The position numbers and the translations under genes were made by a program. The notes under the pieces were generated by a model. The model was not told the DNA's origin. It searched no databases and saw only the letters and a list, made by a program, of their open reading frames with translations. A stretch of 64,000 nt of DNA from the NCBI GenBank assembly GCA_021083345.1, contig JAJGRE010000001.1:930001-994000 (forward strand), read 5' to 3'. Below, piece by piece: positions 22,232 to 55,595 of the stretch (its first letter is position 1; the number at the start of each line of letters is the position of its first letter). The stretch is from Calditrichales bacterium MX18-03 (GTDB lineage: Bacteria; Bacillota; Clostridia; Lutisporales; Lutisporaceae).

Positions 22232-22386
22232 TTTATCACTCCTCATTGCGTCAGTACCTTTCTATCATTATACTTTGTCCATAGCCGTCCTTCCATATAG
22301 AAATACTGCCGCAGCGCTTCCGTTCCTGATCAACCGGCGGCATGCCGGCTGCTGATAAAATACAGGCTGCTTATTTTCCTTCACTA

Positions 22387-22435
22387 TCTTTAATGATAAA
22401 GCCTAAATCTTAAAATATTCTGACAAAGTCTTAAA
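22387..22435 (+). repeat. Three TCTTtAA direct repeats at 21-bp spacing
   Basis: TCTTTAA at 22387, TCTTAAA at 22408 and TCTTAAA at 22429: exact 21-base steps (two helical turns), ending 25 bases before the -35 box. This is the arrangement expected for OmpR/PhoB-type dimers binding head to tail, and suggests autoregulation. Confidence 0.5.
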
Positions 22436-22460
22436 GTTTTTTAAGATTTGCATGACTTTC

Positions 22461-22490
22461 TTGTTTTCCGATTCCGCAGGGTGGTATAAT
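22461..22490 (+). promoter_or_regulatory. Promoter of the response regulator gene
   Basis: TTGTTT (22461-22466), 18 bases, TATAAT (22485-22490) with an extended TGG just before the -10 box; 57 bases before the start codon. Confidence 0.7.
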
Positions 22491-22547
22491 TTTATATGCA
22501 ACTGTGTTTGCAAATTCCGTCATAATGCTCAAGGGAGGTTGGAGACA

Positions 22548-23246
22548 ATGGCAAAAACAAAAGTACTGATTGCCGATGATGAAGCTCATATCAGGAAATT
22601 GGTTGCAGCATCTCTTGAATGTGAGAACATAGAGGTCGTTCAGGCATGCAATGGAAGCGATGCGCTTGAGCTGGCGAGGCAAGACGCCTTTGATCTGATC
22701 ATTCTGGATATTATGATGGAGGATATCACCGGCTATGATGTCATCAGCAGAATACGTTCGCTGGGTATCAATACCCCGATTTTTCTCTTAAGCGGACGGA
22801 GTGAGGATCACGATAAAATCATCGGATACGGTATCGGCGCAGATGGTTATATCACAAAACCTTTCAGCCCCTCCGTGCTCTGTGCCCAAGTGAAGACACA
22901 CATCCGGCGCTACAAGGAGCTGCTTGGTGCAAAGGAAAAAAGCTCTAAAATAAACCTGGGCCCCTTTACTTTCAACGAAAAAACATACACCTGCAGCAAG
23001 AACGGCATCCTTTTGAATCTGTCGTCCAAGGAGCTGCAGCTTCTGAAGTTTTTCATGGAAAACCCCAACCAGGTTTTTACCAAGGAGCAGCTGTACCAGA
23101 ATGTATGGGGTGATATCGTCATTGATGATAATACCATCATGGTATATGTACGTCATCTCCGGTCGAAGATTGAGGATGTGCCCGAGAAACCCAAATACCT
23201 GCAGACCGTATGGGGAATCGGCTACAAGTTCTCGGCTGAAGGATAG
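22548..23246 (+). CDS. OmpR/PhoB-family response regulator
   Basis: 232 residues. The receiver domain has the acidic pair DD at 10-11, phospho-acceptor Asp54 and the conserved Lys near 104 in ITKPF. A winged-helix DNA-binding domain (about 130-230) ends in the usual YVRHLRSKIE and TVWGIGYKF. The start is ATG at 22548 behind GGGAGG; an upstream in-frame ATG adds 32 unsupported residues. It diverges from the hybrid kinase of the citrate operon, its most likely partner, although that kinase has its own receiver domain. The promoter shows direct repeats suited to autoregulation. Confidence 0.9.
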   Translation: MAKTKVLIADDEAHIRKLVAASLECENIEVVQACNGSDALELARQDAFDLIILDIMMEDITGYDVISRIRSLGINTPIFLLSGRSEDHDKIIGYGIGADGYITKPFSPSVLCAQVKTHIRRYKELLGAKEKSSKINLGPFTFNEKTYTCSKNGILLNLSSKELQLLKFFMENPNQVFTKEQLYQNVWGDIVIDDNTIMVYVRHLRSKIEDVPEKPKYLQTVWGIGYKFSAEG

Positions 23247-23249
23247 GAG

Positions 23250-23294
23250 AAGGGCTCTCCCGCCCTATGTCAATTCATAAGCTGGAAAGCCCTT
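23250..23294 (+). terminator. Terminator hairpin of the response regulator gene
   Basis: AAGGGCTCTCC (23250-23260) pairs with GGAAAGCCCTT (23284-23294) across a 23-base loop, 11 pairs with one G-U. On the minus strand the same element would form the 3' hairpin of the structured RNA described next. Confidence 0.55.
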
Positions 23295-23396
23295 CATTAG
23301 ATAGCTGCGCTTTTGCGTTAATGCGGTACGCCTAACGTGCTTACTCGGTAAGCTTTTATCCTGTTACGGAAAGGTGCGGCAGCAAAAGCACCCATC
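23250..23396 (-). ncRNA. Putative structured guide-type RNA downstream of the dead TnpB-like gene
   Basis: Minus-strand reading, directly 3' of the TnpB-like stop codon. A 10-bp helix, GUGCUUUUGC (23391-23382) with GCAAAAGCGC (23316-23307), encloses about 65 nt containing a UCC/GGA hairpin (23370-23359), a perfect GCUUAC-CGA-GUAAGC hairpin (23353-23339) and a GUUA/UAAC hairpin with an inner GCG/CGC pair (23336-23317). After the closing helix come 12 unpaired nt (23306-23295), then an 11-bp hairpin shared with the terminator on the other strand. A perfect TATAAT lies just upstream. Position and shape match the omega/guide RNAs encoded at the 3' end of tnpB genes. No family-specific sequence was recognised, so the call rests on structure and place. 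Confidence 0.55.
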
Positions 23397-23401
23397 TTAT
23401 A

Positions 23402-23407
23402 TTATAC
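23402..23407 (-). promoter_or_regulatory. -10 box for the structured RNA
   Basis: TATAAT on the minus strand, preceded directly by TG, begins one base after the TnpB-like stop codon. No good -35 hexamer is seen, as in some TG-assisted promoters. It predicts RNA starts near 23395. Confidence 0.45.
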
Positions 23408-23408
23408 A

Positions 23409-24914
23409 CTAAACAAACTCTATCAGCTTCATAAAATCCGGCACGCTGCGAATTTTCTTGGCGATGCTGGCTTTTTTATTCCTTTCCCTATTCCAGGTTT
23501 CACTGCTTTGCAGCAGAATGTCATCCACAATCAGACTGATTTTTTCGCGAAGCCTTTCAATCTGATTCTCATGATGTGGCACAAAATAGTTCAGCCCGAT
23601 CAGCCGGCTTATGAACCATACTCCGTCATCGGCGCTCCGGACTTTGATCTTGAAGGTTGAATGCCTGTAGTTGATCAGCTTTCTCGCCAGGTTGAGGCTT
23701 CCCAGTTTCTCAATTTCCAAGGTTGCACCGCAGCTGGTACAGATAAAGGTATCCTTGTTGAACCGGTTCAATTTGGAGTTGCAGCCGCATACATGGCAGC
23801 TGTAAAATATGCCCACCGAGCTGACCTTTACAGGGGCCGGCAGCCCCTTTTCCGGCAGCTTGAATGCTAGAAGCCTTGCCATCCTGATATAGGCATCGCA
23901 GTTGTAAATTGGCTGGCTGTTCATAAAGTCATCTGCCCAATGCAGTCTGTCGCCTTTCTCCAAAAGGTTCTGAAGGATGACGGCGGACTTGTACTCCAGG
24001 GCAATCTCCACAATGCTGTTGGCAGCCTTATGCAGCTCATCCAAAGGCACTGCTGCGTTCTTAGACGTTTGCCCGGTGCGAGAAAGGGTCCCGGCTGCCA
24101 CAACATTTCCTTCCGGATCGGCAACGGTATAGCATAAATCATTCTTTAGTCCTCTCGCTACGCCCAGATAAGTTTCTGTCCTGATCTCTTCGGCTTTTCC
24201 GGTATCAACACTGATGGCCAGATAGTACGAACCGTCTTTCCTGCCCAGCTTGGCCGTCCTCAATATCTCCGGCCTTTCCAGGGAAGCTCGGAGGATCTCT
24301 TCCTGGTATTTCCCGAAGGACAAGGGCACGATTATATAGGCTTCCTTGCTTTTTCCCCGTTCCACCACACCGGCGGACCGATGAATATAAGTCAGCTTTC
24401 CCTCCTGATCCCCCTGCTGCGGCACCACTTTATTGGCATGCTTTGCATTTAAGAGGTGCAGTTTTGCAAAATACCGGTTTTTTTCACTGTCATAAAGCAG
24501 GCAATAGCTCCTGCCGGTATCGTATCTGCAGAAATAAACAGGCCTGAGCCTTTCAACCTCCGTACCCGTACGGCAGTTGGCAAGCGGAAAGCTGGTACCC
24601 GGCCTCAGTGCCTTGAGCCTGAAATAGCCTGCCAAGGTCATCCCTACCTCCAGCTTCAGGGCATCTTTGAACGGTTGTACATCAAACTGGTTCAGCTCTT
24701 TGCTCCGCTCGCTGCTCACCCATTTGGAAAGGGCCAGCGCATTCTGTGTGCCTTTGGTACCGGCAAATGCATCCTTGATTTCCTTAAGCTCGGTATAAGC
24801 CTTTTCCAGTAAAAAGCGGTATGCCCTGTTGTAGTTGGTTATGGCTTCATCTATGACCAGGCATTTGCGCTTGCTTGGCTTATTCAATTTTAATACGATC
24901 GTGCGTAAGCCCAT
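23409..24914 (-). CDS. Nuclease-dead TnpB-like protein (TldR-type)
   Basis: 501 residues related to TnpB/IS605 OrfB and small Cas12 proteins. The C-terminal half shows the RuvC framework, but every catalytic acid is replaced. RuvC-I reads LGVARGLKN with Ala253 instead of Asp, RuvC-II reads VILQNL with Gln315 instead of Glu, and RuvC-III reads LGSLNLARKL with Ser406 instead of Asp. The inserted zinc finger is intact (Cys373, Cys376, Cys392, Cys395). About 90 residues follow RuvC-III. No TnpA or element ends lie nearby. The start is ATG at 24914 behind GAGG, which overlaps the phosphatase stop codon; a TTG five codons earlier lacks a site. Known dead TnpB proteins (TldRs) are RNA-guided repressors. 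Here the gene is the last of a sensory-hydrogenase operon. Confidence 0.85.
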   Translation of the reverse strand: MGLRTIVLKLNKPSKRKCLVIDEAITNYNRAYRFLLEKAYTELKEIKDAFAGTKGTQNALALSKWVSSERSKELNQFDVQPFKDALKLEVGMTLAGYFRLKALRPGTSFPLANCRTGTEVERLRPVYFCRYDTGRSYCLLYDSEKNRYFAKLHLLNAKHANKVVPQQGDQEGKLTYIHRSAGVVERGKSKEAYIIVPLSFGKYQEEILRASLERPEILRTAKLGRKDGSYYLAISVDTGKAEEIRTETYLGVARGLKNDLCYTVADPEGNVVAAGTLSRTGQTSKNAAVPLDELHKAANSIVEIALEYKSAVILQNLLEKGDRLHWADDFMNSQPIYNCDAYIRMARLLAFKLPEKGLPAPVKVSSVGIFYSCHVCGCNSKLNRFNKDTFICTSCGATLEIEKLGSLNLARKLINYRHSTFKIKVRSADDGVWFISRLIGLNYFVPHHENQIERLREKISLIVDDILLQSSETWNRERNKKASIAKKIRSVPDFMKLIEFV

Positions 24915-24925
24915 TGTTCTTTTCC

Positions 24926-26098
24926 TCAACTGTATTCGATTCTTACCTGCTTTCCGATGCTTCTCAGGCAGTGGACGATCTCTTCCACCAGCTTGAGTTT
25001 CAAACTCAGACTCAGCGGCAGCTCGGTGTTCTGGTGGGCCGGATTCATGGCACGGCCTACATAAATGTCAATATTTGTACTTTCATCCATAATCATCTTT
25101 GCCAGTCTGGAAGCGCCATCCTTATTGTTCAGGTTCAGAAAATCCTCCATGGTACTCTCCGAAGCTGTGCAGGCCTTTATCAGCTCCAATGCCCGCCTGA
25201 TGGTCAGCACACCTTCTGTTACCAGGCTGATACCTTCAATCTCCGCTGTAGGCGGGATTGCTGGGTTGAAATAATCAAAGTTGGGTACAACCTTTTTGCC
25301 CGATTCCCTTGCCACGATTTGGGCTGTCGTTCCGCCGCACACGACTTTGATGCCTTCTTTCTCAAGGAATTTTGCAACCACCTGGGAATCCTGCTCCTTA
25401 TATACAGGCGGTCCCACCATCAGGCTCAGATTGAGAGGCTTCTTCACTCTGACAGCCGATACGGTTGTATCGTCTCCCGGCCTTTGGGCGTACAAGCTGG
25501 TGCAAGCTGATAAAAGCAGTTTGGTAACAGCCTTTGAAGACATATCGGCTTTATAGGCGTTCTGAAGGAATTGCGCCACGTTTCCCCACTGCCAGCCCAG
25601 GTTCAGCCTTCCCCCGATCCCTGCATGAATGACACCGTCGCTGACCATGACAAATAAGTCATCCTGTTCCAGCTCAAACCGGGCTTCCTTTACGGTTTTT
25701 CCGCTGATGGACCTGGTGACGGTTTCCAAAGGCTGCAGCCTGCCCTTCCGAAGTCTGAAGATGGACGGGTTGTCGAACTCTACCAGGTAACCCTTTCCAT
25801 TGCTGAAAAGCTGGAGAATGGTAAAAGTGGAATAGGCGATAGCCCTTTCCTTGCAAACCGGGAGCGTACTGGCAATGGTTTCTACCGCTTCGTCCAGATC
25901 AGACCCGCCTGCCAGCATGGTTGCGATGATCTTGGCGGTAAGCGTCGCCAGGATGTTGGCTTTCACACCGCTTCCCAGCCCATCTGCCAGCACAATGATG
26001 ACGGATTGGTCGTTTCGGATGATTTCCACCTTATCACCGCACAGCTCCTCTTTATGCTTGCTCAGGCTTTCAAAATAAGTTTCCAGATAAAAACTCAT
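24926..26098 (-). CDS. SpoIIE-type PP2C protein phosphatase
   Basis: 390 residues. The N-terminal 230 form a PP2C/SpoIIE phosphatase domain with metal-binding aspartates in VLADGLGSG, MVSDGV and PGDDTT. The C-terminal 160 residues (from about VGPPVY) are a separate domain that I do not recognise. Its start overlaps the hydrogenase stop (ATGA), so the two are translationally coupled. PP2C phosphatases next to group C [FeFe]-hydrogenases are a known arrangement and are thought to pass the hydrogen signal on by dephosphorylating a partner. No kinase or anti-sigma partner is in this operon. Confidence 0.85.
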   Translation of the reverse strand: MSFYLETYFESLSKHKEELCGDKVEIIRNDQSVIIVLADGLGSGVKANILATLTAKIIATMLAGGSDLDEAVETIASTLPVCKERAIAYSTFTILQLFSNGKGYLVEFDNPSIFRLRKGRLQPLETVTRSISGKTVKEARFELEQDDLFVMVSDGVIHAGIGGRLNLGWQWGNVAQFLQNAYKADMSSKAVTKLLLSACTSLYAQRPGDDTTVSAVRVKKPLNLSLMVGPPVYKEQDSQVVAKFLEKEGIKVVCGGTTAQIVARESGKKVVPNFDYFNPAIPPTAEIEGISLVTEGVLTIRRALELIKACTASESTMEDFLNLNNKDGASRLAKMIMDESTNIDIYVGRAMNPAHQNTELPLSLSLKLKLVEEIVHCLRSIGKQVRIEYS

Positions 26099-27816
26099 TT
26101 GCTATCACTCATCTCTGCCATGATGGATTTTTTCAGCTTTGTCAAAGCCACCTTGGTTTCAGCTGTGGTTTCTCCCAGAAGGCTGGCAATTTCCTGGGCG
26201 ACCCGCATCTGCTTTTCAATGACCTTCTGGGCAATATCCACGTTCTCGGAGCGGAGCTGGTGCATATGACGGTACCGCTGCTCCTCCTCTGTGATATCTT
26301 TTATGATGACGACGGTGATCTTTTGTTCAGGAATATAAATGATGGATTGCTCGGCAATAACGCCGTAGTCCTCATAGAAAAACTTGCTGGCGTTAATATT
26401 ATTGCCGCTTTGGTGAACTTTTTCGATGTCTTCGCACTTCAGGATTTCGTGTATCTTTCTGCCTTCCACGGTTTGGGTATCCAGTCTGAACATCCTTCTC
26501 GCAGAGTTGTTCACCTCATGAATGCACAGCTCGCTGTCCAAAGCGAATATCGCATGGGGCGTCGTTTCGATGATCAGGTTGGATATGGATTCCGCTCTTT
26601 CCTTCATATAGGGTAAACACATATGGAGCGATGCCTTTTTATGGTAGACGGCAACGGCCTTATCACGGCAGGTCGAGTAACCGCAAGCGCCGCAGTTCAA
26701 TTCCTTGTCCTTGGTAAATTTGCCGATACTGTTCAGAATGCTCTGTATGGCTTCCTGGGTCGGCATCATATTGCTGTTGGACCGGCTGGAAAACTTCCTG
26801 CTGAAATCGATTTTTACGGCTGCAGCCGGTAAGGCATTCTCCTTGACGGAACTCCGCTTGACAAATTCAATCAGCCTTGTCCTGGCTTCCAGTGCTCCGC
26901 CCTTGACATAGCTCATACAAGGGCCGCCGATACAGCCTCCGGAACAGCTGTTCATCTCTATGAAATAGTTTTCGGTCCCATCGTTCTTAATGGAGTCCAA
27001 AACCTTCATGCAGCGGTCTACACCATCGACACTGATGCACCTGTAATTCTTCTTGGCTTTATTGTCAATGGTCTTCAAAATGCCTCCGGGCAATGGATAA
27101 ATCCGTGTGGATGTTTCTTTTGCCGCTTTGACCTCCTCGGAGAACTGACCATCTGCATAGATTCCCGATTCCGTCATCCATTCCTCCAATTCTTGAAAGG
27201 TCAGAACCGCATTGATGGTTCCGAAGTTGTGCATATCGCTGCATTCCTGCTTTTTTGAGGCGCAGGGACCGATAAAGACCACCTTGATCCTGGAACCGTA
27301 TGTTTCCCTGAGCATCTTTGCATGGGCAACCATGGGTGAAATCACCGGCGCCATTTGGCTGACCAGTTCCGGATAGTATTTTTCTATTAAGTATACAATG
27401 GCGGGGCATGCCGTTGTGATAATGTTTTTCATTTCACGGGCATTCATCAGCTTTTCGTACTGTCTGGATACCTGTATTGCACCAAAGGCTGTCTCTTCCA
27501 CATGGGTAAAGCCCAACCCCTTCAAAGCTTGTACCATCCACTTTTCATTGACGTTCTCGAAAGCTGAAACAAAGGAGGGTGCCAAGCTCACATAGACCTT
27601 CTCCTTCTTTTTTATGAAATTTTTAACGATTTCGGCATCTTGCCGGATGCTTTTGGCATTCTGAGGACAAACCGTGAGACAGTTGCCGCAAAGGATGCAG
27701 TCATCCTCAATAAGCTCCACCTGGCTGTTATTGAAAGCAATGGCTTTCACCGGGCAGTGCCGAATGCATTTGTAACAATTCCTGCAATCCGCTTTTTTAT
27801 ATTGAATGATACTCAT
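26095..27816 (-). CDS. hydS: Sensory [FeFe]-hydrogenase (group C, HydS-like) with PAS domain
   Basis: 573 residues. Two N-terminal 4Fe-4S motifs (C-x2-C-x2-C-x3-C) are followed by an H-cluster domain with variant signatures: TTACPAIV in place of TSCCPxW, GPCASKK in place of MPCTAKK, and SCSGGCIGGPC. The first cysteine of the usual pair, the proton-relay residue, is Ala. A further Cys-rich segment (CGACGYSTC) and a PAS domain (about 430-540) end in a helical tail. This is the layout of hydrogen-sensing group C enzymes rather than catalytic ones. It overlaps the 2Fe-2S gene upstream and the phosphatase gene downstream, forming one signalling operon with the dead TnpB-like gene. Confidence 0.85.
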   Translation of the reverse strand: MSIIQYKKADCRNCYKCIRHCPVKAIAFNNSQVELIEDDCILCGNCLTVCPQNAKSIRQDAEIVKNFIKKKEKVYVSLAPSFVSAFENVNEKWMVQALKGLGFTHVEETAFGAIQVSRQYEKLMNAREMKNIITTACPAIVYLIEKYYPELVSQMAPVISPMVAHAKMLRETYGSRIKVVFIGPCASKKQECSDMHNFGTINAVLTFQELEEWMTESGIYADGQFSEEVKAAKETSTRIYPLPGGILKTIDNKAKKNYRCISVDGVDRCMKVLDSIKNDGTENYFIEMNSCSGGCIGGPCMSYVKGGALEARTRLIEFVKRSSVKENALPAAAVKIDFSRKFSSRSNSNMMPTQEAIQSILNSIGKFTKDKELNCGACGYSTCRDKAVAVYHKKASLHMCLPYMKERAESISNLIIETTPHAIFALDSELCIHEVNNSARRMFRLDTQTVEGRKIHEILKCEDIEKVHQSGNNINASKFFYEDYGVIAEQSIIYIPEQKITVVIIKDITEEEQRYRHMHQLRSENVDIAQKVIEKQMRVAQEIASLLGETTAETKVALTKLKKSIMAEMSDSK

Positions 27817-31554: not shown

Positions 31555-33309
31555 CTAGTCCAGCCTGACAGCTTTGAATTTGCACACTTCCAGGCACTTG
31601 CCGCATTTGATGCACTTTCCGCCGTCGATGGTATGGGCCTGCTTCTTTTCGCCGGATATTGCGGCCACCGGGCATTTTCTTGAGCATAGACCGCAGCCGA
31701 TACAGCTTTCGGCATCGATGGTATAGGTCAACAGGTTCTTGCAGCTCTTTGCCGGGCATTTTTTATCCTTGATATGGGCGATGTATTCGTCCTTAAAATA
31801 TTTCAATGTTGTCAAAACCGGATTGGGAGCCGTCTGACCGAGACCGCACAGGGATCCATCCTTTACAGAGAGCGCCAGCTCTTCCAGTTCTTCCAGGTCA
31901 GTTTCCTGCCCTTTTCCGTCGCAGATCCGTTCCAGTATCTCCAGCATCCGCTTGGTTCCGATACGGCAATATATGCACTTCCCGCAGGATTCCTTACAGG
32001 TGAAGTCCAGGAAGAACCTTGCCATATCCACCATACAGGTGTCCTCATCCATGACGACCATACCGCCGGAGCCCATGATGGCACCGGTCTTTGTGATGGA
32101 CTCGTAGTCAACGGGTGTATCCAGGAGCGCTGCCGGAATGCAGCCGCCGGAAGGACCTCCCATCTGCACGGCTTTGAATTGCTTATCCGCCTTGATTCCG
32201 CCGCCTATGTCATAGATAACCTCTCTCAGCGGCATGCCCATGGGTACTTCCACGAGACCGCCGTTCTTGATCTTGCCTGCCAGGGCAAACACTTTCGTGC
32301 CCTTGCTCTTTTCGGTGCCGAGGGCGGCATACTCGCTTCCGCCGTTCAGCATGATCCAGGGCACGTTGGCGAAGGTTTCAACGTTGTTGATATTGGTGGG
32401 CTTTGCGAAGTAACCGGACTGCGCAGGGAACGGCGGCTTAAGCCGCGGCATGCCCCTTTCGCCTTCCAGTGAGGCGATGAGCGCCGTTTCTTCACCGCAT
32501 ACGAAAGCACCTGCGCCCTTCTTGATCCGGATGCTGAAATTGAAGCCGCTGCCCATGATATTGCTGCCCAGCATGTTGCGGCTTACCGCCTGCTCTATGG
32601 CTATTTCCAAACGCTCAATCGCCAGCGGATACTCGGCGCGCACGTAAATGATACCTTCATTTGCACCAATGGCATATCCCGAAATCGCCATACCTTCCAG
32701 CACTGCATGAGGGTCACCTTCCAGAACGCTTCTGTCCATGAATGCACCTGGATCTCCTTCGTCAGCATTGCATACGATGTATTTGATGTCACCCTTGGAC
32801 TGCCTTGCCGCATTCCATTTGAACCAGGTGGGAAAGCCGGCGCCGCCCCTGCCCCTGAGCCCTGATGTCTTGATCTCCTCAATGACCTGCTCCGGTGTCA
32901 TGGTATCCAGTATCTTCTTCAAGCCCATGTAGCCGTCATTGGTCAGATATGCATCGATGTCTTCCGGATCGATGTGTCCGCAGTTCTTCAAAGCGATCCG
33001 CACCTGCTTCTCCATCAGAGGATTCGGTTTTTTTGAGCTGGAAATGATATAGTGCTCTAAGGGCTTGCCATTCACTACATGGGATGTAATGATCTCCTCT
33101 GCGATTGCTTCTGTCACATTGCCGTAGGTATAGATCTCATCCCCGTCGATCAGGTCCAGTATCGGCTCATAAAAGCACATCCCAATGCAGCCTGCAGATT
33201 CTATCTCGATTTTGATGCCCTGATGGGCTGTTTCCTTCTTCAGAAGCTCCATCACCTTTTTCCCGCCCGATGCGATGCCGCAGCTTCCAAGACCAATTCT
33301 AAGCTTCAT
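31555..33309 (-). CDS. NuoF/HydB-type flavoprotein subunit (StnB-like)
   Basis: 584 residues with the start at ATGAAGCTTAG, behind AGAGGG; 14 upstream codons in frame are unsupported. An N-terminal thioredoxin-like 2Fe-2S domain (about 1-85), the FMN/NADH core with GRGGAGFPTWFKW (near 155), the SLBB domain, the 4Fe-4S site CGKCIYCRIGTKRM and two C-terminal 4Fe-4S motifs all match HydB-like subunits. It overlaps the NuoE gene by 11 bases and is 18 bases before the StnA-like gene. It provides NAD(H) binding and the FMN, probably the bifurcating site. Confidence 0.88.
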   Translation of the reverse strand: MKLRIGLGSCGIASGGKKVMELLKKETAHQGIKIEIESAGCIGMCFYEPILDLIDGDEIYTYGNVTEAIAEEIITSHVVNGKPLEHYIISSSKKPNPLMEKQVRIALKNCGHIDPEDIDAYLTNDGYMGLKKILDTMTPEQVIEEIKTSGLRGRGGAGFPTWFKWNAARQSKGDIKYIVCNADEGDPGAFMDRSVLEGDPHAVLEGMAISGYAIGANEGIIYVRAEYPLAIERLEIAIEQAVSRNMLGSNIMGSGFNFSIRIKKGAGAFVCGEETALIASLEGERGMPRLKPPFPAQSGYFAKPTNINNVETFANVPWIMLNGGSEYAALGTEKSKGTKVFALAGKIKNGGLVEVPMGMPLREVIYDIGGGIKADKQFKAVQMGGPSGGCIPAALLDTPVDYESITKTGAIMGSGGMVVMDEDTCMVDMARFFLDFTCKESCGKCIYCRIGTKRMLEILERICDGKGQETDLEELEELALSVKDGSLCGLGQTAPNPVLTTLKYFKDEYIAHIKDKKCPAKSCKNLLTYTIDAESCIGCGLCSRKCPVAAISGEKKQAHTIDGGKCIKCGKCLEVCKFKAVRLD

Positions 33310-33835
33310 GATTTGCACCCTCTTTTTCCTTTTTGTAGATGTCCCTGACAATCTGTCTCGCAGAATCCGGCGTCAGCTTTCCGTAGGCCTCGCCGTCTAT
33401 CATGATAACGGGAGCCAGACTGCAGCACCCCAGGCAGGCCACATCTTCCAACGTAAACATGCCGTCTTCAGTGGTGTCTCCGGGGCTTATGCCCAGCTCT
33501 TCGCACAATGCCGAGCTCACTGCCTTTGAGCCATTTACATGACAGGCGGTCCCCTGGCATTGCAGAATGATATGCCTTCCAACAGGCTTCAGCCTGAACT
33601 GCGTGTAAAATGTAGCAATCCCGTAAACCTTTGCCCTTTTTACACCTGTCCTGTCTGCAATTGTCCTCAGTACGTCAAGAGAGAGATAACCATATAAGTC
33701 CTGTGCCTTCTGCAGGATGCTGATGACGCTTCCTGCCTTGCCTTCATATTCCCTGAATACGGGATCAAGGCGGCTCAAATCTGCTTCCTTTTCAGAAAAT
33801 CCTTGTTCCATTTTCTTTTCACAACCATCACACAT
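33299..33835 (-). CDS. NuoE/HydC-type [2Fe-2S] subunit (StnC-like)
   Basis: 178 residues from ATGTGTGATGG, 6-7 bases after GAGGTG; an upstream ATG adds 15 residues without a good site. The thioredoxin-like 2Fe-2S ligands are CQGTAC and CLGCC, preceded by the usual helical N-terminal domain. An extra N-terminal CDGC pair precedes the family core. First gene of the three-gene complex that transfers electrons with the NuoF-type and StnA-like subunits. Confidence 0.88.
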   Translation of the reverse strand: MCDGCEKKMEQGFSEKEADLSRLDPVFREYEGKAGSVISILQKAQDLYGYLSLDVLRTIADRTGVKRAKVYGIATFYTQFRLKPVGRHIILQCQGTACHVNGSKAVSSALCEELGISPGDTTEDGMFTLEDVACLGCCSLAPVIMIDGEAYGKLTPDSARQIVRDIYKKEKEGANHEA

Positions 33836-33893
33836 TGCATTCACCTCATTTACATTAAGTTGTTCCCTAATCCTGTGCATTCGGGACCAAATG

Positions 33894-34328: not shown

Positions 34329-34348
34329 TATTATTAGATACGGTTTTT
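34329..34348 (-). promoter_or_regulatory. Shared 20-bp motif, copy A
   Basis: Plus strand TATTATTAGATACGGTTTTT; identical at 19 of 20 positions to 55576-55595 before hydABC. It lies 75 bp from the Rex-like site, compared with 76 bp there. It contains TATCTAAT on the minus strand, also present in the unpaired segment of the putative guide RNA. Confidence 0.5.
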
Positions 34349-51362: not shown

Positions 51363-53063
51363 CTAAGATTCTTTATTCAATTCATGCCTGTGAAGCAGTT
51401 CATGCTTGTCTTTCAGTATGCCTTCATACAGCGCTATAATGGTGGGGTTTTCTTCCGACCGCTTGATGGTGGACCCGCTGTCTGCATTGTAGATCCCTTT
51501 TGTCCGCTGCTTCTTGATGTGTGCTGACTGGGGCACCGGCTGACCGGCACCGCCGATGCAGCCGCCCGGGCAAGCCATTACTTCTACAAAATCGTATTGC
51601 TTTTCTCCGGCTTTGATCATTTTCACAAGTGCTTCGGCGTTTTTGAGTCCATGCACCACTGCAATGGTTACTTTTCTGCCATCCAGTTCAATCTCAGCTT
51701 CCTTAACGCCTTCCATACCCCTGGTGCCCGCAAAAGCGAGATTCTTCAGGCTGCCTATCGTTTTATCACTGCATAGATGCCGCAGCACAGCTTCTGCTAC
51801 CCCGCCGCTTGCACCGAAAAGGACGCCTGCTCCGCTTGAAAGTCCGAATGGCATATCCACGGCTTCTTCTTCCAATTCGTTGAACATAATACCGTTCTCT
51901 TTGATCATCATGGCAAGCTCCTGAGTGGTAATCACCATATCCACGTCACGGGTGCCGCTGTTGCGGTTTTCAGGTCTTGCTGCCTCATACTTCTTTGCTG
52001 TACAAGGCATGATGGATATGACCACTGTCTCTCTTCCTTCTGCTTCCCTATCGGTCTTGAAATGTTCTTTAATGACAGCACCAAACATCTGCTGGGGTGA
52101 TAAGCATGTGGAAACCTGCTCCATGAGCTCCGGGAATTTTTGCTCCGCATACTTGAACCAGGCCGGGCAGCAGGACGTGAACAACGGAAGCCTTTCCCCC
52201 TTCTGCAGGCAGCCTGCAAATTCCCGGCTTTCCTCCATGACGGTAAGGTCGGCGGCCATCGAGGTGTCATATACCTGATTGAAGCCCATCCTTCTCAGTG
52301 CGGCCACAATTTTCCCCATGGTTACGCTGCCGGGCTCCAGTCCGAATTCCTCGCCGATGGCTACCCGCACCGCCGGAGCGATCTGGGCTATGACAAACTT
52401 GTTTTTATCGTTCAGCACTTCCCATGCGTTGTCGATATCTCTTTTGATAACCAGAGCCCCTGTCGGGCAGACCGTCCTGCATTGCCCGCAGTTTACGCAG
52501 TTTACGTTGCTGATGGGCCGGTTGAAGGCTGTGGTTACCTGCATTTTTGCTCCCCTGTAGGCGAAGTCTAACGCGCCAACGCCTTGAACTTCATTGCACA
52601 TCCTGACACAGTCGCCGCAGAGAATGCACTTGTTGGGGTTTCTGACAATGGATACACTGCTGTTGTCAACCGGCAGCTCCTTTTCATCCTTGTCAAACCG
52701 GACCTTCTTGATGCCGAACCGTATTGCCAGTTCCTGCAGGATGCATCTTCCTGTCTTTTCACATACCGTGCAGTCCCTGTCATGGTTTGCCAGGATCAGC
52801 TCCAGGATCATTTTTCTGTGCTTTTTCAGCTTTTGCGTATTGGTATATATCTCCATCCCATCCTTGGGAACCGTTGAACAGGAGGCCATTATTCCGCCCC
52901 ATTTGTCTTCTACCATGCACATTCTGCAAGCCCCGTAAATACTCAGCTCAGAATGATAGCAGAACGTCGGCAGGTCTATGCCGGCTTTTCTTATAACCTC
53001 AAGGATATGTTTTTCTCCGTTGAAATCTACTCTTTGTCCGTCAATCAGCATGCTCCCTTTCAT
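51363..53063 (-). CDS. hydA: HydA, catalytic subunit of bifurcating [FeFe]-hydrogenase
   Basis: 566 residues: 2Fe-2S domain (about 1-75), His-Cys 4Fe-4S site (HDRDCTVCEKTGRC), two 4Fe-4S motifs (about 140-200), then the H-cluster domain with all three canonical signatures TSCCPAW, MPCTAKK and CPGGCIGGAGQP, and a short tail with the small-subunit part. It reduces protons or oxidises hydrogen. With HydB and HydC it couples NADH and reduced ferredoxin to hydrogen formation. Starts 4 bases after the hydB stop behind AGGAGG. Confidence 0.95.
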   Translation of the reverse strand: MKGSMLIDGQRVDFNGEKHILEVIRKAGIDLPTFCYHSELSIYGACRMCMVEDKWGGIMASCSTVPKDGMEIYTNTQKLKKHRKMILELILANHDRDCTVCEKTGRCILQELAIRFGIKKVRFDKDEKELPVDNSSVSIVRNPNKCILCGDCVRMCNEVQGVGALDFAYRGAKMQVTTAFNRPISNVNCVNCGQCRTVCPTGALVIKRDIDNAWEVLNDKNKFVIAQIAPAVRVAIGEEFGLEPGSVTMGKIVAALRRMGFNQVYDTSMAADLTVMEESREFAGCLQKGERLPLFTSCCPAWFKYAEQKFPELMEQVSTCLSPQQMFGAVIKEHFKTDREAEGRETVVISIMPCTAKKYEAARPENRNSGTRDVDMVITTQELAMMIKENGIMFNELEEEAVDMPFGLSSGAGVLFGASGGVAEAVLRHLCSDKTIGSLKNLAFAGTRGMEGVKEAEIELDGRKVTIAVVHGLKNAEALVKMIKAGEKQYDFVEVMACPGGCIGGAGQPVPQSAHIKKQRTKGIYNADSGSTIKRSEENPTIIALYEGILKDKHELLHRHELNKES

Positions 53064-53067
53064 TTTC

Positions 53068-54939
53068 TCATACCTCCTCTACTGCAGAAAACGGACAGGC
53101 TTCCACGCATGCGCCGCATTTTATGCATTTCCTATTGTTTATGACAAAGGCTTCCTTTACTTTTCCGGTAATCGCTGTTGCAGGACATGCCTTTGCACAT
53201 TTGCTGCAGCCTTTGCACAGCGCTTCATTAATGACAAAGGAGCTTAAGCTTTTGCAATTGCGGGTGGGGCATTTCTTTTGCACCACATGAGCCAGGTATT
53301 CGTCCCTGAAATACTTCAATGTACTGATTACCGGGCTGGGTGCAGTCTTGCCCAGGCCGCAGAGCGCGGTACTGCTGATGGTATCCGCCAGCTCTTCCAG
53401 CATGTCCAGGTCTTCCAGGCTGCCTTTCCCTGCAACGATTCCCTCCAGTATTTCCAGCATTCTTTTTGTCCCTTCCCGGCAGGGGACGCATTTGCCGCAG
53501 GATTCCTTCTGTGTGAAGTTCATAAAGAACCTTGCCACTTCAACCATGCAGGTGTCTTCATCCATGACAACGAGGCCGCCGGAACCGATCATGGCGCCTA
53601 CTTTTTTCAGCGAATCAAAATCAAGAGGCAATTCCATATGGGTTTCTGTCAGACAGCCGCCGGAAGGTCCGCCGATCTGGACCGCTTTGAACTTCTTGCC
53701 GTCGTTGATGCCGCCGCCGATGTCGAATATGACTTCTTTCAGAAGGGTTCCCATCGGAACCTCTATCAGTCCCGTATTGTTAACATTGCCTGTAATGGCA
53801 AAGGCCTTGGTTCCGGGACTATTTTCCGGTCCGATAGAGCGGTACCACTGGGCTCCCTTCAGTATGATATGCGGTACATTGGCAAAGGTTTCAACATTAT
53901 TCAGCATGGTCGGTTTGCCCCACAAGCCCTGTTCGACGGTTCTTGGCGGCTTCACCCTGGGCATGCCTCTCTCCCCTTCTATGGACTGGGTCAGCGCACT
54001 GCTCTCTCCGCACACGAAAGCACCGGCACCCTTGTTGATCTTTATGTCAAAGCTGAAGCCGGAACCCAATATGTTTTCACCCAAGAGCCCTATTTCCCTG
54101 GCCTGCTCCACTGCCAGCTGCAGCCTTGCAACCGAAAGCGGGTATTCCGCACGGACATAGATATAGCCTTCCGATGCCTTGCATGCGTACCCTGCGATAA
54201 TCATGCCCTCCAGCACGCTATGGGGATTTCCATCCATAACGCTTCCATCCATGAAAGCGCCTGGGTCTCCCTCGTCCCCATTGCATACCACATACTTGAC
54301 TTCACTATTCTGGGCTAATACCTGAGACCATTTTCTTCCTGCCGGATAACCGCCGCCCCCTCGTCCCCTCAGATTCGATTTGGAAATTTCGTCGCAGATC
54401 TGCTCGGGTGTCATTTGGAGCAGCGCCTTGCCTGCTGCAGTATAGCCGCCCTTGGCAATATATTCCATAATGTTCTCACAATCAATCTGCCCACACTGCC
54501 CCAGCACCAATCTGGTTTGTTCGCTGTAAAAGGGTATTTCAACCGGTGTATGGCACACGCGGCTGCCGGACTGATACATCAGCCTTTCGACGGGTTGGTT
54601 CTGAAGCAGCGTTTTTTCTATGATCTCGACGCAATCCTGCTTGTCCACCCTGAAATATTGATAATCGAAGGGTTCTACCCTGACAAGCGGTCCCAGCTGA
54701 CAAAGACCCTGGCAGCCGCTTTTTTTGATGCCAATGCCCTTTTCTTCCGCCTCCAGCACGACATCAACCAGCAATCCTTTTTCCGCTACAAGCCGCTTAA
54801 GTTCTTCATATATGCCAAATGAGCCGGCTGCAACACATCCCGTTCCGCAGCAGACAAAGACGCGCTTTTCCTGGTTTTCAAGCGCTTTGCGGGCTGCTAC
54901 AGCAACTTTTTCAAACTGTTCTATGTTATTAACCTTCAT
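53068..54939 (-). CDS. hydB: HydB, NAD/FMN subunit of bifurcating hydrogenase
   Basis: 623 residues: N-terminal thioredoxin-like 2Fe-2S domain, NuoF core with LRGRGGGGYPAGRKW (near 190), SLBB, 4Fe-4S site CGKCVPCREGTKRM and two C-terminal 4Fe-4S motifs (CKGCSKC and CIKCGAC). It carries FMN and the NAD site. Its ATG overlaps the hydC stop (ATGA). About the same layout as the StnB-like protein at 31555-33309, so the two complexes are paralogous. Confidence 0.93.
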   Translation of the reverse strand: MKVNNIEQFEKVAVAARKALENQEKRVFVCCGTGCVAAGSFGIYEELKRLVAEKGLLVDVVLEAEEKGIGIKKSGCQGLCQLGPLVRVEPFDYQYFRVDKQDCVEIIEKTLLQNQPVERLMYQSGSRVCHTPVEIPFYSEQTRLVLGQCGQIDCENIMEYIAKGGYTAAGKALLQMTPEQICDEISKSNLRGRGGGGYPAGRKWSQVLAQNSEVKYVVCNGDEGDPGAFMDGSVMDGNPHSVLEGMIIAGYACKASEGYIYVRAEYPLSVARLQLAVEQAREIGLLGENILGSGFSFDIKINKGAGAFVCGESSALTQSIEGERGMPRVKPPRTVEQGLWGKPTMLNNVETFANVPHIILKGAQWYRSIGPENSPGTKAFAITGNVNNTGLIEVPMGTLLKEVIFDIGGGINDGKKFKAVQIGGPSGGCLTETHMELPLDFDSLKKVGAMIGSGGLVVMDEDTCMVEVARFFMNFTQKESCGKCVPCREGTKRMLEILEGIVAGKGSLEDLDMLEELADTISSTALCGLGKTAPSPVISTLKYFRDEYLAHVVQKKCPTRNCKSLSSFVINEALCKGCSKCAKACPATAITGKVKEAFVINNRKCIKCGACVEACPFSAVEEV

Positions 54940-55418
54940 TTTGATTCATTCTCCTTAATCTCCTTAATGACCGCTAAGGCAGACTCCGGTGTCATCTTGG
55001 CATATACCTTGCCGTTGACGAGGATGACCGGAGCAAGTCCGCATGCTCCAAGGCAGGATACCGTTTCCAAAGTAAAAAGAAAATCATCAGTGGTATGCTT
55101 TGAACTGTTCAGTCCCAGCTCTTTTTTTATGGTGTCCAGGATGGGAATGGATTTCTTGACGTGGCACGCTGTACCGTCACAGATCTTGATGATATATTTT
55201 CCCTTTGGCTCCAACGAAAAGTTTTCGTAAAAAGTGGCAACGCTGAAGATTTTTGAAAGAGGTATGTCGATTTCGGTTGAAATGTGCTCAAGCACCTCTT
55301 CCGGCAGATAGTTGTATGCACTCTGGATTTCCTGCAGCATGGCGATCAACGCCGACCGGTTATAGGCATATCCGGCTAAGATGCCGTCAACCTCCGGGTA
55401 TTTGCTTTTGTCCAACAT
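54936..55418 (-). CDS. hydC: HydC, [2Fe-2S] subunit of bifurcating hydrogenase
   Basis: 160 residues, NuoE family, with 2Fe-2S ligands CDGTAC and CLGAC. The start is ATG at 55418 behind AAGGAGG; an in-frame GTG three codons earlier lies inside the ribosome site. First gene of hydCBA. Upstream lie a Rex-type operator and the 20-bp motif shared with the Stn-like region, so expression probably follows the NADH/NAD ratio and possibly the hydrogen signal. Confidence 0.93.
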   Translation of the reverse strand: MLDKSKYPEVDGILAGYAYNRSALIAMLQEIQSAYNYLPEEVLEHISTEIDIPLSKIFSVATFYENFSLEPKGKYIIKICDGTACHVKKSIPILDTIKKELGLNSSKHTTDDFLFTLETVSCLGACGLAPVILVNGKVYAKMTPESALAVIKEIKENESK

Positions 55419-55482
55419 GGGAAGCACCTCCTTAAAACTATAAATTGTGTGTTGTACAATGTATACAATTCATGTCGCTATC

Positions 55483-55575: not shown

Positions 55576-55595
55576 TATTATTAGATATGGTTTTT
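55576..55595 (-). promoter_or_regulatory. Shared 20-bp motif, copy B
   Basis: Plus strand TATTATTAGATATGGTTTTT, 19 of 20 identical to 34329-34348, 76 bp from the Rex-type site and about 160 bases before hydC. Contains TATCTAAT on the minus strand. Confidence 0.5.

What the first reader, a model, noticed from the sequence alone, without database searches (positions are those of the whole stretch)
23250..23407. Structured RNA locus with its own -10 box directly 3' of the dead TnpB-like gene
A 10-bp long-range helix (23382-23391 with 23307-23316) closes a multi-hairpin scaffold including a perfect 6-bp stem with a 3-nt loop. A perfect TATAAT lies one base past the stop codon. Then come 12 unpaired nt before an 11-bp terminal hairpin. 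TnpB guide RNAs arise from exactly this position. The 12-nt segment would be a short guide, similar in length to the short guides known for some TldRs.
Basis: partly seen in the sequence, partly recalled or inferred. Interest (0 to 1): 0.9.

Follow-up and report, generated by a model that had tools for sequence, protein, structure and literature searches.

The report
RNA-guided regulator of hydrogenase genes
A dead relative of the DNA-cutting protein TnpB, with a small guide RNA encoded right behind it, appears to steer itself to the switches of hydrogen-metabolism genes in clostridia, which would make it an RNA-programmed part of a hydrogen-sensing circuit.

Summary
The RNA locus is real and best read as the guide RNA of a nuclease-dead TnpB/Cas12f-like regulator (TldR-like). 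Its scaffold follows the gene in all 40 loci examined (32 distinct genomes) and its stems covary. The TATAAT has no -35. The guide starts three bases later than proposed: TATCTAATG, 9 nt. AAAACC[G/A/T] followed by the guide's first 5-10 nt stands before hydrogenase operons. In the window's genome all three intergenic copies precede nuoE-type genes. Own guides match targets better than shuffled guides (2 of 5000 as high), and genomes whose guide reads TATTTA have TATTTA sites (4 of 4). The gene sits beside a HydS-type sensory hydrogenase in 32 of 32 genomes. Sites lie upstream of predicted -35 boxes at repeated spacings, suggesting an RNA-guided activator; that step is inferred. Nine of 32 genomes gave no site, one a mismatched site. 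No expression or binding data exist. The open library searched showed no HydS-linked TldR, but it lacks most subscription papers.

The parts
23409..24929 (-). tldR-like gene, 506 aa, dead TnpB/Cas12f-like protein (A258, Q320, S411 at the RuvC triad positions) with an extra C-terminal part of about 80 aa
23304..23397 (-). guide RNA scaffold: hairpin 1 23392-23388/23377-23373, pseudoknot 23383-23379/23308-23304, hairpin 2 23353-23348/23344-23339
23295..23303 (-). guide segment TATCTAATG
23250..23294 (-). terminal hairpin, terminator-like
23401..23406 (-).
34333..34348 (-). predicted target site AAAAACCG|TATCTAAT (motif 34348-34341, guide match 34340-34333) upstream of the nuoE-type gene that heads the formate-dehydrogenase/hydS/tldR gene run
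55580..55595 (-). predicted target site AAAAACCA|TATCTAAT (motif 55595-55588, guide match 55587-55580) upstream of hydrogenase genes
24926..26098 (-). SpoIIE/PP2C-type phosphatase, 390 aa
26095..27816 (-). HydS-type sensory [FeFe] hydrogenase with PAS domain, 573 aa
27797..28063 (-). thioredoxin-like [2Fe-2S] ferredoxin, 88 aa
28225..31536 (-). 1103-aa molybdopterin oxidoreductase fused to a pyridine-nucleotide oxidoreductase (formate-dehydrogenase-like)
33299..33880 (-). nuoE-type gene following the first target site
51363..53063 (-). [FeFe] hydrogenase HydA (group A6-like), part of the run following the second target site
54936..55427 (-). nuoE-type gene following the second target site

Best explanation
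The locus encodes the guide RNA of a TldR-like RNA-guided transcription regulator that belongs to a hydrogen- or redox-sensing operon (HydS, PP2C, TldR). The RNA is probably cut out of the 3' end of the operon transcript, is held by the dead Cas12f-like protein through the pseudoknotted scaffold, and exposes a short guide beginning TATCTA. The complex recognises a 5' motif (A)AAAACCN in DNA and pairs with the 5-10 nt that follow. The sites lie in one orientation, upstream of the predicted -35 box of hydrogenase and hydS operons and, in some genomes, of NfnA-like and alcohol-dehydrogenase genes. Bound there it most likely activates transcription by touching RNA polymerase, with the signal coming from HydS and the phosphatase. 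Shown by sequence: dead nuclease, conserved RNA with covariation, guide-target matches, linkage to hydS, repeated spacing to predicted promoters. Inferred: RNA processing, RNA and DNA binding, activation, hydrogen signalling. My confidence is about 0.85 for RNA-guided promoter binding and about 0.6 for activation given binding; the figure below is for the whole statement with either sign weighted.
For: Triad lost: RuvC-I D and RuvC-III D absent in 32 of 32 homologues, RuvC-II E in 23 of 32. RNA in 40 of 40 loci, 93.5% paired cells, covariation reached by 0 of 500 shuffles. Three of three intergenic AAAACCNTATCT copies in the window's genome precede nuoE-type genes. Forward 24 of 111 against reverse 1 of 105 near-matches. 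Own against shuffled guides. TATTTA guides with TATTTA sites, 4 of 4. Motif in 9 of 14 tldR-positive and 32 of 377 negative genomes. Spacing of 52-54 nt to the best -35 in 6 of 10 lineages, 0 of 1000 shuffles. HydS next door in 32 of 32.
Against: Nine of 32 genomes gave no site in the scanned regions, one (L022) has a mismatched site and one could not be examined. TATCTG guides mostly face TATCTA sites. Motif copies per genome are no more frequent than the reversed pattern. The TATTT change is one clade, so perhaps one event. Promoters are predicted. No transcript or binding data. Positions beyond the guide match are also alike between targets (AT-rich), which a plain protein-binding site would also give.
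Confidence: 0.75

Rival explanations
1. Same RNA-guided promoter binding, but as a repressor as in known TldRs: the complex hinders the hydrogenase promoters until HydS signalling releases it.
For: All TldRs described in the passages read are repressors (PMC13418256). Known ones also use very short guides.
Against: Best predicted -35 boxes lie downstream of the site, by 23, 41-42 or about 51-54 nt in most lineages, so the core promoter is not covered; one orientation only (24 to 1).
Confidence: 0.3
2. The promoter motif AAAACCNTATCT is the site of an unrelated DNA-binding protein, and TATCT in the RNA is a structural part of the scaffold; the match is chance or shared ancestry.
For: TATCT is nearly constant in the RNA, and target sequences resemble each other beyond the guide match.
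Against: Matches extend to 8-10 nt with the genome's own guide more often than with shuffled guides (17 of 5000 for 8 nt or more). RNA and site change together to TATTT in Oscillospiraceae. The motif is found before hydrogenase genes in tldR-positive genomes, in none of 21 negative loci read.
Confidence: 0.12
3. The structure is only a terminator or 3' untranslated element between the convergent tldR and response-regulator genes, or an antisense read-through product.
For: It lies between convergent genes in the window and ends in a hairpin.
Against: The scaffold is conserved in all 40 loci whatever gene follows, with covarying internal stems and pseudoknot upstream of a separate, variable terminator.
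Confidence: 0.05

Closest known systems
TldR (TnpB-like nuclease-dead repressors), fliC- and csrA-linked
   Same: Dead TnpB-like protein, guide RNA directly 3' of the gene, very short effective guide (6 nt suffices in one case, PMC13418256, passages read), linked to non-transposon genes
   Different: Partners are a sensory hydrogenase and phosphatase; predicted targets are several hydrogenase and redox operons; sites lie upstream of predicted -35 boxes at repeated spacing; AACC-type 5' motif; extra C-terminal part
Cas12f / TnpB nucleases (AsCas12f1, ISDra2 TnpB)
   Same: Fold over residues 7-424 (AsCas12f1 Z 20.9, 349 aligned; ISDra2 TnpB 8h1j Z 16.0); pseudoknotted RNA (that theirs is pseudoknotted is recalled)
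   Different: RuvC catalytic residues lost; no transposon or CRISPR array seen in the stretch scanned
dCas12f with dedicated sigma factor (RNA-guided transcription; recalled, PDB titles 9n9c and 9n9m)
   Same: Dead Cas12f-like protein that would recruit transcription
   Different: Here ordinary sigma-70-like boxes follow the site; a linked sigma factor gene was not searched for
HydS / hfs clusters (sensory [FeFe] hydrogenase with serine phosphatase)
   Same: PAS-containing hydrogenase beside a serine phosphatase (PMC11837493, PMC10055695, passages read)
   Different: In the loci without tldR that were read, other genes follow the phosphatase; here an RNA-guided regulator does

Membership tests
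TldR | TnpB/Cas12f-like protein | tested here: met
   (below curated Pfam and NCBIfam cut-offs)
TldR | RuvC nuclease residues lost | tested here: met
   RuvC-I and RuvC-III aspartates absent in 32 of 32, glutamate in 23 of 32
TldR | Structured guide RNA encoded beside the gene | tested here: met
TldR | Guide matches a host promoter site with an adjacent motif | tested here: met
   21 of 32 genomes with a site, 1 mismatched, 9 none, 1 not examinable
TldR | Linked to non-transposon genes (domesticated) | tested here: met
   hydS upstream in 32 of 32
TldR | Binds guide RNA and target DNA | not testable with these tools
   needs RIP-seq and ChIP-seq
TldR | Represses its target | not testable with these tools
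   geometry suggests activation instead
IS200/IS605 TnpB nuclease | Intact RuvC triad | tested here: not met
Type V-F CRISPR-Cas (Cas12f) | CRISPR array beside the gene | tested here: not met
   no array-like repeat family in window 22300-26200; elsewhere not searched
dCas12f with dedicated sigma factor | Linked sigma factor gene | not tested
   neighbouring ORFs were listed but not all annotated

The most novel reading that the evidence does not exclude
An RNA-guided transcription activator, derived from a dead TnpB/Cas12f nuclease, that works with ordinary sigma-70-type promoters from a fixed, helically phased upstream position and is the output of a hydrogen-sensing hydrogenase-phosphatase pathway, co-ordinating several hydrogenase and redox operons with one guide of 5-10 effective nucleotides.
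Probability: 0.5. Interest if true: 0.95.

Novelty: new variant of a known kind. Interest (0 to 1): 0.88.

Why it matters
How HydS-type hydrogen sensors reach transcription is not settled: the passages read call the regulatory role predicted or apparent. This locus offers a directly testable answer. It would extend RNA-guided transcription factors from flagellin control to the core energy metabolism of clostridia, with a regulon of several operons, and possibly from repression to activation. It could also provide a compact activator that works with a very short guide.

Tried and rejected
Own promoter (TATAAT): no partner box. Long guide matches (12 nt or more): the first search gave mostly terminator arms and chance hits; targets became visible only with 7-8 nt. 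Extra guide RNAs elsewhere in the genomes: none convincing, next-best E 0.0056 against 4.8e-13 or better for the true copies. A conserved AAAAACCGTATCTGA stretch inside a 183-aa ORF of G100, G127 and G193 was set aside as probable coding conservation (not tested further). C-terminal part: best fold match an antitoxin, 3k6q, E 0.1, TM 0.64, not significant. Rfam: only a tRNA at gathering score. The first genome-contig scan, with the single protein, found nothing; with the alignment it found 26 loci. Six genomes, five of them without a site near hydS or nuoE, were scanned genome-wide with a loose pattern; counts were like the reversed control and the hits were not read.

Rows dropped: alignment A2 has 26 of the 31 distinct RNA sequences; near-duplicates and two with long insertions were left out. 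In one search, 18 of 101 hits were not fetched (all 10 of G253, 8 of 10 of G214). Of the 38 motif hits in tldR-negative genomes, 21 were read. In one search I chose one promoter per lineage by hand (10), and I chose that promoter model and window width. Alignment A1 has 14 and A3 has 13 of the 32 proteins.

Full report
What was checked. The minus strand of 23250-23407 folds far better than shuffled sequence (z -4.59, 0 of 200 shuffles as good). A sigma-70 scan finds no promoter there on the minus strand. Rfam has no family for it at gathering score.

The protein. The 506-aa product of 23409-24929 is a distant TnpB/Cas12f relative: PADLOC Cas12f E 5.8e-10, tblastn to an annotated TnpB E 9e-18 at 28% identity, but below the curated cut-offs of Pfam and NCBIfam. 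An AlphaFold2 model (pLDDT 82.7, pTM 0.55, 14 sequences) aligns to AsCas12f1 with Z 20.9, 349 residues, rmsd 3.0, over residues 7-424; the last 80 or so residues are extra. In 32 distinct homologues the RuvC-I and RuvC-III aspartates are absent in all, the RuvC-II glutamate in 23 (A258, Q320 and S411 in the window). That these columns are the catalytic triad rests on motif context and recall.

Where it occurs. In 391 genomes of the class, 14 including the window's own have it at E 1e-8; in the order, 1 of 22, the window's own. A named scan gave 26 loci, among them Ruminiclostridium, Petroclostridium, Caloramator, Christensenella, Caproiciproducens and Clostridium rhizosphaerae; I judged 8 to repeat earlier ones, leaving 32 distinct. 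A HydS-type hydrogenase precedes it in 32 of 32; in the window the gene order is HydS, SpoIIE/PP2C phosphatase, tldR, and the 13 class homologues show ORFs of the same lengths and N-termini in that order, with an 868-aa ORF between phosphatase and tldR in three of them. The phosphatase occurs in 107 of 391 genomes, and all 14 tldR-positive genomes are among them. In 16 loci without tldR other genes follow the phosphatase.

The RNA. The scaffold GTGCTTTTGCTGCCGCAC ... CTTACAGAGTAAGC ... AAAGTGCAGC|TATCT, with variation, follows the gene in all 40 loci. On 26 sequences hairpin 1, hairpin 2 and the pseudoknot GCUGC/GCAGC give 93.5% paired cells, 10 pairs and 58 cells with changes on both sides; 0 of 500 shuffles reach any of these, while the number of further pair types is not raised (371 of 500 as high). 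The pseudoknot helix pairs in 26 of 26, with GC to AU in five and CG to UA in one; RNAalifold picks the same helix unprompted. Hairpin 1 is unpaired at several positions in four GC-rich sequences. A covariance model finds one strong copy in each of 24 genomes, E 4.8e-13 or better; the next best is 0.0056. So close to the stop codon in some genomes, the RNA is more likely cut from the tldR transcript than made from its own promoter (inference).

The targets. The segment after GCAGC begins TATCT in most lineages, TATTT in four Oscillospiraceae and TATCC in one MAG. Copies of its first nucleotides preceded by AAAACC[G/A/T] stand in front of hydrogenase operons. In the window's whole genome AAAACCNTATCT has 6 copies: three lie inside ORFs; the three intergenic ones all precede nuoE-type genes and match the guide over 8 nt (Pfam 2Fe-2S_thioredx). 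The number of motif copies per genome is no higher than for the reversed pattern, so the signal is in the place, not the count. Of 83 hits read in 13 tldR-positive genomes, 19 are intergenic with a gene downstream: 14 precede nuoE-type or hydS genes, 2 an NfnA-like FAD/NAD-binding gene, 1 an iron alcohol dehydrogenase, 2 others.

Controls. Upstream of nuoE and hydS, AACCN followed by at most one mismatch to guide positions 1-6 occurs 24 times in 111 forward and once in 105 reverse. For ACCNTAT sites in 25 genomes, own guides match on average 5.84 nt against 4.86 for shuffled guides (2 of 5000 as high); 16 genomes reach 6 nt (6 of 5000 as high), 5 reach 8 nt (17 of 5000). Relatedness inflates these figures. 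All four genomes with TATTTA guides have AAAAACCA|TATTTA upstream of hydS-like genes, one of them on another contig; this may be a single evolutionary event. AAAAACCRTATCTRA occurs in 9 of 14 tldR-positive genomes (20 hits) and 32 of 377 negative ones (38 hits); of 21 negative loci read, 18 are inside ORFs and 3 intergenic, none before a hydrogenase gene.

Against. Of 32 genomes, 21 have a site with at least the first five guide nucleotides after a CCN-type motif, some with a weaker motif (ACCG, GCCG). Nine gave none in the scanned regions (four Christensenella-type, two Caloramator, three MAGs), one (L022) has a site with a mismatch, and one could not be examined. Guides with TATCTG mostly face TATCTA; a G-T wobble is possible but untested.

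How it may act. The best-scoring sigma-70-like -35 lies 52-54 nt downstream of the guide-match start in 6 of 10 hand-chosen promoter lineages (0 of 1000 shuffles reach 6). Tandem sites add one at 23 nt; Ruminiclostridium has 41-42; one window-genome site has 30 and one MAG 86. The main classes differ by roughly whole helical turns, and sites have one orientation. This fits an activator touching RNA polymerase better than a roadblock, but promoters were predicted, not mapped.

What is known. TldRs are RNA-guided repressors linked to flagellin and CsrA, and 6-nt guides suffice in one case (PMC13418256, passages read). The discovery paper could not be read. HydS is described as a PAS-containing sensor predicted to regulate hydrogenase genes, and a serine phosphatase accompanies its relative in hfs clusters (PMC10055695, PMC11837493, passages read). 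Searches of the open library (listings) showed no HydS-linked TldR; subscription papers and preprints are mostly absent, so a prior report cannot be excluded.

Verdict. The finding stands, corrected in detail: a guide RNA locus of a TldR-like regulator with predicted hydrogenase targets. Every TldR feature that could be tested is met; repression is not testable here, and the geometry argues for activation.

Noticed in passing
L024, L027, L029, L030, L031 hydrogenase promoters; window about 34258-34242: Boxes of the form TTGTTAA..TTAACA or TTGACA..TTAACA near the predicted promoters, resembling sites of the redox repressor Rex (Rex recalled). Hydrogenase genes may be under both controls.
   Followed up: partly
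window 23409-23650, C-terminal end of the protein: About 80 residues beyond the Cas12f-like core, present in all homologues aligned; predicted as three strands and two helices (pLDDT 80), no significant fold match. A candidate contact surface for polymerase or a signalling partner.
   Followed up: partly
L153, L157, L161: The motif also precedes an iron alcohol dehydrogenase and NfnA-like genes in tldR-positive genomes, hinting at a wider redox regulon.
   Followed up: partly
L114 about 2029-2560: In G370 an intergenic AAAACCTTATCT stands just before a 178-aa ORF that looks like a sigma factor by eye; not annotated.
   Followed up: no
L180 and genome G238: A genome without detected tldR has four copies of AAAAACCRTATCTRA; the one read lies inside an ORF.
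   Followed up: no
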